DNA from: Sphingomicrobium astaxanthinifaciens
Lineage (GTDB): Bacteria > Pseudomonadota > Alphaproteobacteria > Sphingomonadales > Sphingomonadaceae
Assembly (NCBI RefSeq): GCF_022865105.1
Contig: NZ_JAKNYM010000002.1
Coordinates: 219,501-283,500, forward strand
DNA: 64,000 nt
Direction: 5' to 3'
Shown here one piece after another: positions 7,099-53,320 of this stretch; within the stretch, counting starts at the first letter, position 1; each line of letters starts with the position of its first letter. The notes beneath the pieces are model-generated. The model was not told the origin of the DNA. It was given only the letters and a program-made list of their open reading frames with translations, and did no database searches. A program made the position numbers and the translations under genes.

Positions 7099-7521
7099 CT
7101 ACTGCGCGAAGCGGTCGTGCAATTCCATCATCGCGAGCACCGCCCTGGCCGCCTCGCCCCCCTTGTCCTTGCGCTTGGGATCGGCGCGGACCTCGGCCTG
7201 GTCGCGGTTCTCGACGGTGAGGATCGCGTTGCCGATCGCCAGCCCGTCGAGCGTCAGCGCCATCAGCCCGCGCGCGCTCTCGCCCGAGACGATCTCGAAA
7301 TGATAGGTCTCGCCACGGATCACCACCCCGACCGCGACATAGCCGTCGTACCGCCCCGACTGCGCCGCCAGCGCGATCGCGCCGGGCAGTTCGAGCGCGC
7401 CCGGCACGGTGATCGTCTCGTGGCTGTGCCCCGCCGCCTCGAGCGCGTCCTTAACCCCCTGCAGCAGCTGGTTGTTGAGACCCTCGTAATAGCGTGCCTC
7501 GGCGATCAGGATCTTGCCCAT
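7099..7521 (-). CDS. ribH: 6,7-dimethyl-8-ribityllumazine synthase
   Basis: A 140-residue enzyme that joins 5-amino-6-ribitylamino-uracil and 3,4-dihydroxy-2-butanone 4-phosphate, the penultimate step of riboflavin synthesis. The substrate-binding motif [10 protein letters not shown], then [14 protein letters not shown] with the conserved His, and the late region [10 protein letters not shown] match the family. The ATG at 7521 forms a TGATG junction with the ribB stop; a GTG at 7524 is an alternative. It is the last gene of the leftward ribD-ribE-ribB-ribH cluster. The usual partner nusB does not follow. Confidence 0.96.
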
Positions 7522-8801
7522 CACTCGTCCCCCGTCTCGATGCCGCGTTCCTCGACGATGCGCAGCCCGTAGCCGTCGAGCGCCACCGGCGCATGCCGCG
7601 TATTGGTCAGCAGGATCATGTCCTGCAGGCCCAGCGCGGCGAGGATCTGCGCGCCGATGCCGTAGCCGCGCAGCGCCGGGCCGGTGGTCGCCGGGCGCCC
7701 CGAGCGCAGGTCGGTCGAGCGGCTGAGGCTGCGCGGGGCGGCGGCGTGAAGCGCGACGATGACCCCGCGCCCCTCGCGCTCGATCATCCGCATCGCGCCC
7801 TTGAGCAGCCCCGCGCGCTCGCCCTTCTCGCCGAGCACGTCGGCGAACAGGTCGAGGCTGTGCATCCGCACCAGCGTGGGCGCCTCGGGGTCGACCGTGC
7901 CGTGCACCAGCGCCAGCTGCTCCTCGCCGCTGGCCTTGTCGCGATAGACGCGCGCGTGCCAGCGCGCGCCGGTCGCGCTCGTGAAATCGCTGTCGGAGAC
8001 CTGCTCGACCATGTGATCCGAGCGCAGGCGGTAGGCGATGAGGTCGCGGATGGTGCCGATCTTGAGCCCGTGCTCAGCGGCATAGTCGATGAGGTCGTCC
8101 AACCGCGCCATCGTGCCGTCCTCGCGCATGATCTCGCAGATCACCCCCGAGGGGTTGAGCCCGGCCAGCCGCGCCACGTCGACCGCCGCCTCGGTGTGCC
8201 CGGCGCGCACCAGCACCCCGCCCGGCTGCGCGGTGAGCGGGAAGACGTGCCCCGGCGACACGATCTCGTCGGGGCCGTTGTTGGCATCGATCGCGACCGC
8301 GATCGTGCGGGCGCGGTCGGCCGCGCTAATCCCGGTGGTGACCCCCTCGCGCGCCTCGATCGAGACGGTGAAGGCGGTCTGCATGCTCTCGCGATTGACC
8401 CGCGCCATCGGCTCAAGCCCGAGCTGCTCGACCCGCTCCTTGGTTAGCGCGAGGCAGATCAGCCCGCGTCCGTGGCGGGCCATGAAGTTGATCGCCGCCG
8501 GGGTCGCCATCTGCGCGGGGATGACCAGATCGCCCTCGTTCTCGCGATCGTCGTCGTCGACGAGGATGAACATCCGCCCGTTGCGCGCCTCGTCGATGAT
8601 CGTCTCGGCATCGGCGAGCACGTCGGCGCGCCCGATCACGCGTTCGAGCCGTGCGAGCGTCTCGGCGGTCGGGTTCCACTCGGGGGTGCCCAGCTTGCGC
8701 AGGCTGTTGGGGTGGAGCCCCGCTGCGCGGGCCAGCCCGGCGCGGGTCATCTTGCCGTCATCGACAAGCGATGTGATGCGATCGAGGAGTTCGGTAGCCA
8801 T
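7521..8801 (-). CDS. ribB: HTH-RibB-degenerate RibA fusion: 3,4-dihydroxy-2-butanone 4-phosphate synthase
   Basis: 426 residues in three parts. Residues 1-60 form a helix-turn-helix of the Cro/XRE type ([15 protein letters not shown], then [13 protein letters not shown]), which ordinary RibB proteins lack. Residues 66-265 are a complete DHBP synthase with [12 protein letters not shown] at 81-92 and [16 protein letters not shown] at 200-215, so ribulose 5-phosphate conversion should be intact. Residues 266-426 resemble GTP cyclohydrolase II, but the zinc cysteines are absent ([11 protein letters not shown] where HSECLTGD is expected) and RQEGRGIGL is missing. An inverted repeat lies 11 bases upstream of the start; self-regulation by the HTH is inferred. 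Confidence 0.93.
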
Positions 8802-8812
8802 GGCAGGGCAAT

Positions 8813-8830
8813 ATCACATTCCAATGTGAT
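8813..8830. promoter_or_regulatory. Perfect inverted repeat upstream of ribB (candidate operator)
   Basis: ATCACATT-CC-AATGTGAT: two perfect 8-base arms around two bases, in the 47-base gap between ribE and ribB and just ahead of the ribB start. A half-site-like ATGTGAT also occurs at 8771-8777 inside the first ribB codons. The repeat is oriented TCACA...TGTGA, the inverse of a CRP site. It suits a dimeric HTH protein, and the encoded RibB carries such a domain. Confidence 0.6.
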
Positions 8831-8848
8831 GTCCAGCCGCCGCGTCGG

Positions 8849-9463
8849 CTATTGCGCTGTCGGCTCGCGCGCCGCGAGCATGCGCTCGAGATAGCGCGCG
8901 AGCACGTCGATCTCGAGGTTGAGCCGGCGCCCCACCGCGACCGTGTCGAAGGTGGTGTGCTGCGCGGTGTGCGGGATGAGGTTGACGGTGAAGCGGGTGG
9001 CCGCGCCCGCGTCCTCGACGTCGTTAACGGTCAGGCTCACCCCGTCGAGCGTGACCGAGCCCTTCGCCGCCAGCGCCGCGCCGAGCCGCCGCGGGGCCTC
9101 GAGCTTGAGGCGCAGCGAGCCGCCCTCTTCCTCGCTCGCCACCAGCTCGGCGAGCCCGTCGACATGCCCCGTGACGATATGCCCGCCCAGTTCGTCCCCC
9201 ATCCTGAGCGCGCGTTCGAGGTTGAGCCGCGCGCCTTTGACCCACAGGCCCGGCGCGGTCTTGGACACCGTCTCGCCCGACACGTCGACCGCGAACCAGT
9301 CCTCGCCCTTGTCGACCACCGTGAGGCAGGCGCCCGAACAGGCGATCGAGGCGCCGAGGTCGACGCTGTCCATGTCATAGTCGCAGCCGATCACCAGCCG
9401 CTTGTCGCCGCGCTCCTCGACGCTGCGCACGGTGCCGATGTCGGTGATGATGCCTGTGAACAT
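8849..9463 (-). CDS. ribE: Riboflavin synthase alpha chain
   Basis: 204 residues, the usual length, with two repeated lumazine-binding barrels. Each begins with a recognisable motif: [10 protein letters not shown] at the N-terminus and [11 protein letters not shown] at about residue 93. It catalyses dismutation of two lumazines into riboflavin. The start at 9463 (MFTGII) has AGGAAGG upstream. It is followed by ribB after a 47-base gap that carries the inverted repeat, so ribB may be separately controlled. Confidence 0.97.
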
Positions 9464-9556
9464 GCTGGGCCTTCCTGTGTGACCCCCGCCGCTTATCGTT
9501 TCGAGCGCCTGCTGCAAAGCCGTCGCGCGCGGGTAGTCGCTTCAACAAATCTGATA

Positions 9557-10525
9557 TCAGTTTTCGTCGGGGCGATGATCGCGCAGCCGTTCGTAGACTT
9601 CGCGGCGATCGATCCCGAGGTCGGCCCCCTCGCCGATCGCCCAGCGCCCATGCGCGTCATTGATCCGGTCGAGCCCGACATAGCCGATCGAGCTCTGCCC
9701 CTCGCCGATCAGGATCGGCGCGCGATAGATCAGGATGCGGTCGACCAGGTCGGCCTTGAGGAAGGCGGTCGCCACCCCCGACCCGCCCTCGACCAGCAGG
9801 TCGTTGGCGGGCAGCCCGTGGATATCGGCGGGGTCGCGCAGCACCGACCAGCCCTCGGGCGCGTCCATCGTCCGGCTCAGGAGGAGGCGGCGGGGGGACC
9901 AGTCCTCGAGCCCGGGCAGCCGCACGTCGAGCCCGGGCGCGTCGGCCTCGTAGGTGCCGCGCCCGACGAGGATCATGTCGGCGCGGGCGCGTTCGCGATG
10001 GACGTCTGCGCGCGCCTCGGCCCCGGTGAGCCACTTCGATTCGCCCGAGGGGAGCGCGATCTTGCCGTCGATCGACAACGCGAGCTTGAGCGTCACCCGC
10101 GGTCGCCCCAGCGCGAGCCGCGTGAAATAGCCGCCGAGGCTGCGCGCCGCGCGCGTCGCGCCGCGCCCCGTCTCGACCTTGATCCCCGCCGCGCGCAGGA
10201 GCGCGATGCCCGCGCCCGCGGTGCGCGGGTCGGGGTCGGTGCAGGCGATGACGACCTTGCCGATCCCCGCCTCCTCGATCAGCCGCGCGCAGGTCGGGCC
10301 GCGCTCGCTTTCGTGCGCGCACGGTTCGAGCGTCACGTAGAGGCTGGCGCCCCGCGCCCGCGCGCCCGCGCGCTCGAGCGCCATGGCTTCGGCATGCGGG
10401 CGCCCGCCGGGGCGGGTCGCACCCTCGCCGACGATCGCGCCATCGCGCACGATGACGCAGCCGACCGCGGGGTTGGGAGCCGTGCGCCCCCGCGCCTTCT
10501 CGCCCAGGTCGATCGCCCGCGCCAT
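9557..10525 (-). CDS. ribD: Bifunctional riboflavin deaminase/reductase RibD
   Basis: 322 residues. The N-terminal deaminase carries the zinc-binding HAE (GGRPHAEAMAL) and PCAHxxxxxxC (EPCAHESERGPTC) motifs; the C-terminal reductase half has LKLALSIDGKIA and a late VEGG. It deaminates and reduces the pyrimidine intermediate in riboflavin synthesis. It opens the rib cluster here. No FMN riboswitch sequence is visible before ribD or ribB. CTGATATCAG, a 10-base palindrome, overlaps its stop codon at 9551-9560; it has no known function. Confidence 0.96.
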   Translation of the reverse strand: MARAIDLGEKARGRTAPNPAVGCVIVRDGAIVGEGATRPGGRPHAEAMALERAGARARGASLYVTLEPCAHESERGPTCARLIEEAGIGKVVIACTDPDPRTAGAGIALLRAAGIKVETGRGATRAARSLGGYFTRLALGRPRVTLKLALSIDGKIALPSGESKWLTGAEARADVHRERARADMILVGRGTYEADAPGLDVRLPGLEDWSPRRLLLSRTMDAPEGWSVLRDPADIHGLPANDLLVEGGSGVATAFLKADLVDRILIYRAPILIGEGQSSIGYVGLDRINDAHGRWAIGEGADLGIDRREVYERLRDHRPDEN

Positions 10526-51485: not shown

Positions 51486-52528
<1,043 letters not shown>

Positions 52529-52532
<4 letters not shown>

Positions 52533-53320
52533 AGCGCGATCTCGCACACCAGCGGGACGTGGTCCGACGGCTTTTCCCAGCTCCGCACGGGTTCGTGGAC
52601 CTCGTGGTGCACCACCTTGCCGGCGAGCACCGGGCTCGCCCACATATGGTCGAGCCGCCGCCCGCGATCGTTCTTGGTGTGGTCCTTCGAGCGATAGCTC
52701 CACCAGGTGTAGCAGCGTTGCGGCGCGGGAATGAAGCGGCGGCCAAGGTCGACCCAGTCGTGCGCTGCCTGGAGGCGCTCGAGCGCCGCGATCTCGATCG
52801 GAGTGTGGCTGACTACCTTGAGCAGCGCCTTGTGGCTCCACACGTCGCACTCGAGCGGTGCCACGTTGAAGTCGCCAACGAGCAAAGTCGGCTCAGCCAA
52901 CTTTTGAGCCCACGCCGTCATTCGGTCAATGAAGTCGAGCTTCTGGCCGAACTTGGGATTTTCGGCGCGGTCGGGCACGTCGCCGCCGGCGGGCACATAG
53001 ACATTCTCGAGCCGGAACTGCCCGGCGACGCGCACCCCGACATGGCGCGCCTCGCCATTGTCCTGCCAGTCATGGCGCAGGTCTTCCTCGAGCGGCACTC
53101 GGGCGATGGTCGCCACCCCGTGGTGCATGCGCTGCCCGTTGAGCGCGATATGCCGGTACCCGCGCTCCTCGAAGAAGCCGCGCGGGAAGGCGCTATTGTC
53201 GGCCTTGGTCTCCTGCAGGCACAGGATATCGGGGTCGGCATGGTCGAGGAACCGGCTGACGAGGTCGGGGCGGGCGCGAACGGAATTGATGTTCCAGCTG
53301 GCAATCTTGAGGCGGGTCAC
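52529..53320 (-). CDS. xth: Exodeoxyribonuclease III
   Basis: 263 residues of the EEP nuclease fold: IASWNINSVRAR at the start, metal-binding Glu37 in LQETKAD, LLVGDFNVAP, and the closing SDHVPLV. It repairs abasic sites and 3' damage. The start is GTG at 53320 (VTRLKIASWN). Its stop overlaps the ribA start. The 268-base region upstream is non-coding. Confidence 0.95.

What the first reader, a model, noticed from the sequence alone, without database searches (positions are those of the whole stretch)
7521..8830. RibB fused to a helix-turn-helix, next to an operator-like perfect inverted repeat
Residues 1-60 of this RibB form a Cro/XRE-like HTH, and 11 bases upstream of its start lies ATCACATT-CC-AATGTGAT. 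No FMN riboswitch is visible in the cluster. Together this suggests that the enzyme represses its own gene, perhaps sensing substrate or flavin through its catalytic or dead RibA domain. The HTH and repeat are seen; the regulation is inferred.
Basis: partly seen in the sequence, partly recalled or inferred. Interest (0 to 1): 0.8.

Follow-up and report, generated by a model that had tools for sequence, protein, structure and literature searches.

The report
Vitamin B2 enzyme with phage-like repressor domain
In many bacteria of the family Sphingomonadaceae an enzyme that makes vitamin B2 carries a small DNA-binding domain resembling a phage repressor, and a matching DNA target sits just in front of its own gene, so the enzyme very probably turns its own production down.

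Summary
RibB (7521-8801, minus strand) has a 60-residue Cro/C1-type helix-turn-helix (HTH) before an intact DHBP synthase and a dead GTP cyclohydrolase II domain; the repeat ATCACATTCCAATGTGAT (8813-8830) lies 11 bases upstream. In 132 HTH-ribB loci, CACA-N6-TGTG is 8/8 in 124 and 7/8 in 8 within 100 bases of the start; it is 8/8 in 0 of 18 HTH-less ribB loci of the family and 0 of 20 of the order. In 56 HTH+ genomes 34 of 36 strict matches are at ribB, and the site stays with HTH-ribB outside the rib operon. It usually fills the space between a TTG (-35) and a TA (-10). FMN riboswitches: 0 of 61 genus genomes and 1 of 169 in the family, there before an HTH-less rib operon. A phage Cro-like relative has the same operator at the same distance, suggesting capture of a phage cro cassette. 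Best reading: RibB dimers bind the operator and block RNA polymerase (negative autoregulation). Binding, repression and leaderless start are inferred; ligand sensing is untested.

The parts
7521..8801 (-). ribB gene: HTH-DHBP synthase-dead RibA (HTH-RibBX), 426 aa
8616..8801 (-). Cro/C1-type HTH domain, residues 1-62; helix-turn-helix at about residues 20-36
8028..8606 (-). DHBP synthase domain (residues 66-258), DRENEGD and other motif residues invariant in 44 aligned sequences
   Evidence: PF00926 E 3.8e-84; TIGR00506 over cut-off
7548..7994 (-). degenerate GTP cyclohydrolase II (RibX) domain (residues 270-418), zinc cysteines missing
   Evidence: PF00925; far under the TIGR00505 cut-off
8813..8830 (.). 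operator: perfect inverted repeat ATCACATT-CC-AATGTGAT
8831..8836 (-). proposed -35 element CTGGAC (TTG-type in many relatives)
   Evidence: inferred from column composition in 99 loci and offsets in 132; no consensus promoter found
8808..8813 (-). proposed -10 element TATTGC (TA conserved in 83 of 132 at this offset); would put +1 on the A of ATG (8801)
   Evidence: inferred; not a consensus -10
8849..9517 (-). ribE, riboflavin synthase, upstream in the same cluster
   Evidence: Lum_binding
7099..7524 (-). ribH, lumazine synthase, overlaps the ribB end and would share its control if co-transcribed
   Evidence: DMRL_synthase
9557..10525 (-). ribD, first rib gene of the cluster; no operator-like site near it
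51486..52850 (-). separate ribA with the Cys motif of GTP cyclohydrolase II present; no operator

Best explanation
HTH-RibB is both the DHBP synthase of the riboflavin pathway and the repressor of its own gene. DHBP synthase is a homodimer (recalled). The dimer would present two HTH domains to the two-fold symmetric operator TCACATTNNAATGTGA. The operator usually fills the spacer between the -35 and -10 elements, so bound RibB would shut out RNA polymerase and lower transcription of ribB (and ribH behind it) when enough enzyme is present: a Cro-like homeostatic loop in a lineage nearly devoid of FMN riboswitches. Shown: the anatomy, the co-occurrence of HTH and operator, the near single-site distribution, the conserved geometry. 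Inferred: binding, repression, leaderless start. Open: whether a ligand (Ru5P, FMN, GTP or another) gates binding.
For: Co-occurrence: CACA-N6-TGTG 8/8 in 124 and 7/8 in 8 of 132 HTH+ loci; 8/8 in 0 of 18 HTH- family loci and 0 of 20 HTH- order loci (one of the 20 has 7/8), against 2 of 3939 background 100-base windows of the HTH+ loci (one start codon, L094, corrected). In the tree the HTH- family rows need 3 changes, of which 2 are forced by well-supported branches, so HTH and operator probably went together more than once. Three genomes with both kinds of RibB (G249, G225, G178) have the operator only at the HTH+ copy, 7/8 in G249. The operator stays with the gene: at 11/14 or better in 66 of 70 HTH+ loci without ribE in the stretch held upstream and 62 of 62 with it. 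In 56 HTH+ genomes a strict search gave 36 sites in 34 genomes, 34 of them at ribB, the other 2 inside reading frames. Geometry: both TTG at -9 to -5 and TA at +15 to +17 in 56 of 132; TA at +16 in 83, and for 71 of those the predicted +1 falls within 2 bases of the first base of the start codon. A phage Cro-like relative (AAGLHPNTLRD) has a 12/14 operator at -29 in the gap to an S24/CI-type repressor; 17 of 20,000 shuffles as good, 1 also placed at -26 to -31.
Against: No binding or expression data. The window's own -35/-10 (CTGGAC, TATTGC) are not consensus and the promoter scan found none; 18 of 132 loci have neither TTG nor TA at the expected offsets; for 5 of the 83 the predicted +1 falls just inside the start codon. 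In 20 loci the best full site is at -57 to -61, not near -28, so the architecture varies. Single-sequence HTH matches are under Pfam cut-offs. At 2 mismatches some HTH+ genomes hold further sites over control (30 non-genus HTH+ genomes: 88 sites against 19 for the reversed pattern), so a wider set of weak sites is not excluded; HTH-less order genomes show an even larger excess (10 genomes: 72 against 20), so it is not tied to the HTH. HTH-less relatives in the family do without HTH, operator and, as far as searched, riboswitch, so this control is not indispensable.
Confidence: 0.85

Rival explanations
1. A separate stand-alone regulator binds the repeat; the HTH on RibB has another role (for example protein contact) or none.
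For: There is no direct binding evidence for RibB. The repeat looks like any HTH operator.
Against: The repeat goes with the HTH and is missing without it in the same family. Strict matches are almost only at ribB. The own genome has no second strong match to this HTH profile (next best E 0.12). A phage relative of the HTH has the same operator.
Confidence: 0.08
2. The repeat acts as RNA (hairpin, attenuator or translational block), not as a DNA operator.
For: A 7-8 pair hairpin could form in a read-through transcript from ribE (by eye, not folded here).
Against: The inner pairs A-T, C-G, A-T of CACA/TGTG keep the same letters in 132, 132 and 131 of 132 sites and the outer C-G in 122, while the two central pairs fail to pair (G-U allowed) in 21 and 75 of 132: letters, not pairing, are conserved. 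47 of 100 loci have an extra lone half-site ATGTGA 20-24 bases upstream (0.16 expected). With the predicted start the repeat is not in the transcript (inference). Rfam finds nothing there.
Confidence: 0.03
3. The autorepression is gated by a flavin or pathway ligand bound in the DHBP synthase site or the dead RibA domain, so that HTH-RibB replaces the FMN riboswitch as a true feedback sensor. (A stronger form of the best explanation, not exclusive of it.)
For: FMN riboswitch in 0 of 61 genus genomes and 1 of 169 in the family, that one before a rib operon whose RibBA has no HTH. The X domain of Shewanella RibBX is said to modulate RibB activity by an unknown mechanism (passage in PMC10012899). 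RbkR in archaea is listed as gene regulator and enzyme (passage in PMC8305020).
Against: The dead RibA domain also occurs in HTH-less relatives, so it did not evolve for this. Cro proteins work without ligands (recalled). No ligand data. HTH-less family members have no riboswitch either, as far as searched.
Confidence: 0.35

Closest known systems
RbkR, archaeal riboflavin kinase with N-terminal HTH (seen as a table passage in PMC8305020; other details recalled)
   Same: A riboflavin-pathway enzyme fused at its N-terminus to an HTH and acting as gene regulator.
   Different: Other enzyme (riboflavin kinase, not DHBP synthase) and other domain of life; here apparently one site at its own gene and a phage Cro-like HTH.
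RibBX (Shewanella, Aeromonas, Bradyrhizobium)
   Same: DHBP synthase fused to a RibA-like domain without residues for GTP cyclohydrolase II (passages in PMC10012899).
   Different: No HTH is mentioned in the passages seen; all 18 PDB matches to this protein begin at residue 60 or later.
Phage Cro / C1 repressors, e.g. the Cro-position gene of viral contig L297
   Same: Related small HTH, nearly the same recognition segment, same operator, same distance to the start codon, same upstream half-site offset.
   Different: Stand-alone protein beside a CI-type repressor, not fused to an enzyme.
NadR, PutA, BirA (recalled)
   Same: Metabolic enzymes with a DNA-binding domain that repress genes of their own pathway.
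   Different: Unrelated enzymes and DNA-binding domains; ligand gating known there, unknown here.
Wolbachia wBmxR1/wBmxR2 (passages in PMC3518464)
   Same: Regulators that bind the promoter of a riboflavin gene (ribA) in an alphaproteobacterium.
   Different: Stand-alone proteins reported as activators, not fused to the enzyme.

Membership tests
Cro/C1-type (XRE) HTH DNA-binding domain | Profile match | tested here: inconclusive
   Own sequence under the cut-off; of 30 relatives HTH_3 matches 20, HTH_31 16, HTH_26 16 at E up to 0.1, best 1.1e-4 (HTH_35 in 5, best 2e-5)
Cro/C1-type (XRE) HTH DNA-binding domain | Helical bundle with helix-turn-helix, fold match to known repressors | tested here: met
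   Model pLDDT 84; top 20 PDB matches mostly repressor-type HTH proteins with probability 0.91-0.99, but E 0.22 or more for this short domain
Cro/C1-type (XRE) HTH DNA-binding domain | Binds a palindromic operator as a dimer | not testable with these tools
   Operator conservation is indirect evidence only
RibBX | DHBP synthase domain intact | tested here: met
   PF00926 E 3.8e-84, TIGR00506 235.3 bits over cut-off 177.45, motif residues invariant in 44 sequences
RibBX | RibA-like domain without zinc/catalytic residues | tested here: met
   [14 protein letters not shown] in place of the Cys motif; separate RibA with the Cys motif at 51486-52850
RbkR-type enzyme-regulator | Riboflavin kinase domain plus HTH | tested here: not met
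   Enzyme is DHBP synthase/RibX
FMN-riboswitch-controlled rib operon | RF00050 upstream of rib genes | tested here: not met
   None in the window, the genome or 60 genus relatives

The most novel reading that the evidence does not exclude
A temperate-phage cro cassette (promoter with operator in its spacer, upstream half-site, leaderless start and Cro-like DNA-binding domain) was captured whole in front of ribB in an ancestor of Sphingomonadaceae. It became a self-contained one-gene autoregulation module that took the place of the FMN riboswitch, turning the enzyme itself, possibly through ligand binding, into the sensor of the pathway.
Probability: 0.45. Interest if true: 0.87.

Novelty: new variant of a known kind. 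Interest (0 to 1): 0.77.

Why it matters
FMN riboswitches are the textbook bacterial control of vitamin B2 synthesis. Here a large bacterial family appears to do mostly without them and to use an enzyme that is its own repressor. With one protein, one main site and one gene, binding, set point and ligand gating can be tested directly. It would also be a concrete case of phage repressor parts domesticated as a ready-made promoter-operator-repressor module for a core metabolic enzyme, and a natural fusion module for synthetic autoregulation or flavin production.

Tried and rejected
Riboswitch or other RNA control: the only Rfam match in the window is a tRNA; RF00050 is absent in the genome and 60 genus relatives; rejected. 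Repeat conserved merely because it overlaps the end of ribE: rejected; operator starts overlap ribE coding in 5 of 62 loci, and 66 of 70 loci without ribE upstream keep it. Wider regulon: the two extra strict sites lie inside reading frames and are not taken as members. At 2 mismatches 10 genus genomes have 11 sites (1 for the reversed pattern), 30 other HTH+ genomes 88 (19), 10 HTH- family genomes 12 (7), 10 HTH- order genomes 72 (20); single HTH+ genomes reach 12 (4), 7 (0) and 5 (0). Weak extra sites in some genera are therefore not excluded, but the excess is not tied to the HTH. G125, HTH+, has no site at that setting. Full-length AlphaFold model was poor (pLDDT 71, residues 27-45 without helix), so the HTH was modelled alone. 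Profile search of solved structures with the HTH gave only weak matches (best E 0.076, an O-methyltransferase; an XRE regulator at 0.63). Of the phage-like relatives, L299 and L316 showed no full 4-N6-4 palindrome at the expected place and L298 only 3 of 4 pairs: covariation of recognition helix with operator is suggestive only. L295 and L317-L324 were not resolved. Consensus promoter scan found nothing. NrdR as owner of the site (similar box, recalled) was set aside by argument, without a search.

Limits of the counts: the list was cut at its weak end; 120 of its listed rows were fetched, the others (mostly further members of genera already taken) were left out before their upstream regions were seen. 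Of the own genus 30 loci (the best-scoring, window included) were examined, out of 61 genomes. Before the L094 start fix 118 of 132 HTH+ loci reached 12/14, after it 119. One HTH- family locus (L150) reached 10/14. L164 (order) aligned poorly; it was kept in the HTH-less counts and dropped from the tree. The tree used 96 of 170 loci; HTH+ loci were thinned by number before the build. Names of the family rest on contig-length matches such as L177/L006.

Papers: only search listings and passages (PMC12542839; PMC3518464; PMC5599777; PMC10012899; PMC8305020; PMC13028884; PMC7713065) were seen; no paper was read in full.

Full report
What was checked. The protein is 426 aa: residues 66-257 are DHBP synthase (E 3.8e-84), residues 270-418 a RibA-like domain, and the first 60 residues weakly match Cro/C1 HTH models. 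The zinc-ligand cysteines of GTP cyclohydrolase II are missing; a separate RibA with the Cys motif lies at 51486-52850. The genome has one full-length RibB match, this one, and a second, RibA-only match. The cluster is ribD-ribE-ribB-ribH. No FMN riboswitch is in the window, the genome or 60 genus relatives.

The HTH. Alignment of 30 relatives shows invariant A24, A27-G28-L29-H30, N32, L34-R35, W42-N43-P44, T48 and L52. HTH_3, HTH_31 and HTH_26 match 20, 16 and 16 of them weakly. A model of the domain alone (mean pLDDT 84) has helices 2-15, 20-26, 33-36 and 46-62. Its PDB ranking is led by HipB, C.EcoT38IS, CapH, ClgR and P22 c2 repressor, with high probability but E of 0.22 or more.

Distribution. 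All 60 genus relatives have a RibB match; the best match starts at residue 1-4 in 58, and the other two (G037, G011) are split or at contig edges. In 169 family genomes (own included) 166 have a match; most listed matches start at residues 1-8, a minority at about 41-61, and the list is cut at its weak end. Of 39 genomes from other families of the order 37 have a match; those listed that reach the RibB domain begin at residue 47 or later, except G074 (from 21, with two stops inside). The 80 named loci kept by the collection scan (Sphingomicrobium, Sphingomonas, Novosphingobium, Sphingopyxis, Blastomonas, Sphingobium and others) all carry the HTH on a frame with the RibB motif ENEGD. In 337 genomes of the class 9 match the HTH profile: 4 are RibBs of this family, 2 small stand-alone proteins (L292, L293), 2 long proteins (L294, L296; what follows the HTH in L296 looks RuBisCO-like by eye), 1 unresolved (L295). 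A tree of 96 RibBs places HTH-less family members among HTH+ ones; HTH+ needs 4 changes (3 forced), HTH-less family 3 (2 forced). One gain and several losses is the simplest reading, not a proven one.

Operator. Upstream regions of 132 HTH+ loci (30 own genus, 102 rest of the family) and 38 HTH-less loci (18 family, 20 order) were compared. Scored against TCACATTNNAATGTGA, 29 of 30 and 89 of 102 HTH+ loci reach 12 of 14; 0 of 18 and 0 of 20 HTH-less loci do, and the share among dinucleotide shuffles rounds to 0.0. After correcting one start codon 119 of 132 reach 12 and all 132 reach 10; the frame CACA-N6-TGTG is 8/8 in 124 and 7/8 in 8. HTH-less loci never reach 8/8 (one order locus 7/8), and 2 of 3939 background windows do. 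In 99 sites at -26 to -33 the letters CACA and TGTG are kept in 98 or 99. The site is unique in the own genome. In 56 HTH+ genomes 34 of 36 strict matches are at ribB; 22 genomes have no strict match, which allows one mismatch only. At 2 mismatches further sites appear in HTH+ and HTH-less genomes alike (numbers under Tried and rejected).

Context tests. 70 of 132 HTH+ loci have no ribE in the roughly 1.5 kb held upstream (shorter at contig ends), yet 66 of these have the operator at 11/14 or better; 62 of 62 with ribE do. Three genomes with an HTH+ and an HTH-less RibB have the operator only at the HTH+ copy. One genome of 169 (G252) has an FMN riboswitch; it precedes ribD-ribE-RibBA-ribH with a Cys-motif RibBA without HTH. 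That this is G252's single RibB match (E 1.1e-91, row not listed) is inferred. Two genomes of the same genus (G106, G195) have HTH-RibB with a 14/14 operator. HTH-less family members in the sample have neither system, so what controls them is unknown.

Promoter geometry. TTG is commonest 6-8 bases upstream of the operator (67 occurrences in 132 loci) and TA directly behind it (offset 16 in 83 of 132). Taken as -35 and -10 this gives a spacer of about 17 bases filled by the operator, and a +1 within 2 bases of the first base of the start codon in 71 of those 83, exactly on it in 41. Shine-Dalgarno-like pairing is scarce in loci with the site at -26 to -33 (6 of 99 at -6 kcal/mol or lower, against 28 of 132 shuffled leaders). 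The window's own hexamers are not consensus and a plain promoter scan finds nothing. A lone half-site ATGTGA lies 20-24 bases upstream of the operator in 47 of 100 loci (0.16 expected). In 20 loci the better site is at about -57 to -61 instead.

Origin. The nearest non-RibB relatives found are small stand-alone proteins, several beside repressor-like genes of phages or prophages. In viral contig L297 the gene (AAGLHPNTLRD) lies divergently to a protein with S24 peptidase and HTH matches. The gap contains TCACATTCAGATGTGT at -29 (12/14), with ATGTGA 21 bases upstream. 17 of 20,000 shuffles of that gap hold as good a site, 1 also at -26 to -31. Relatives with other recognition segments have 4-N6-4 palindromes: L313 CGCA/TGCG at -25, L301 CGTA/TACG at -24 of the ATG chosen (-33 of the start used); L298 has 3 of 4 pairs at -28, L299 and L316 no full one there. 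This supports the HTH-operator assignment and suggests, from few examples, that the module came from a phage cro.

Mechanism. Most likely is autorepression by occlusion of the promoter, with the DHBP synthase dimer providing the two-fold symmetry: a set-point control like that of Cro. Ligand gating is possible (RibX is said to modulate RibB in Shewanella, passage in PMC10012899) but untested. Library searches for riboflavin with RibB, HTH and Sphingomonas, HTH-fused DHBP synthase, RibBX, FMN riboswitch in Sphingomonadales and ribB autorepressor listed no title or abstract start describing this fusion. Searches had more hits than were listed, and the library lacks most subscription journals, so absence from print is not shown. 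It is filed as a new variant of a known kind (enzyme-repressor fusions such as RbkR), with an unusual probable origin.

Noticed in passing
L287 (G252:C1:1156500-1166500): The one family genome of 169 with an FMN riboswitch has a rib operon of another type (ribD-ribE-RibBA with the Cys motif-ribH, no HTH), as if swapped in.
   Followed up: partly
L137-L154: 18 HTH-less ribB loci in the family have no operator, and the riboswitch scan of the family found none in their genomes; how they are controlled is unknown.
   Followed up: partly
L297 2380-2704; also L298, L301, L313: Phage or prophage Cro-like genes related to the RibB HTH; changes of the recognition segment seem to track half-site changes CACA, CGCA, CGTA.
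   Followed up: partly
HTH-ribB upstream regions in the family: Second element: a lone half-site 20-24 bases upstream of the main operator in 47 of 100 loci; in 20 other loci the better full site is at about -57 to -61.
   Followed up: partly
L020, L027, L029, L188, L236 (genus relatives), about 50 bases upstream of ribB: A second inverted repeat of the kind GGAACA-N4-TGTTCC lies between ribE and the operator in some genus members; not explained.
   Followed up: no
L296 1477-3120; possibly L294: In another family of the class a weakly related HTH precedes what looks by eye like a RuBisCO-like protein: perhaps another enzyme-HTH fusion.
   Followed up: no
window 51486-52850: Stand-alone RibA with a long N-terminal extension and the Cys motif, without operator or riboswitch.
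   Followed up: partly
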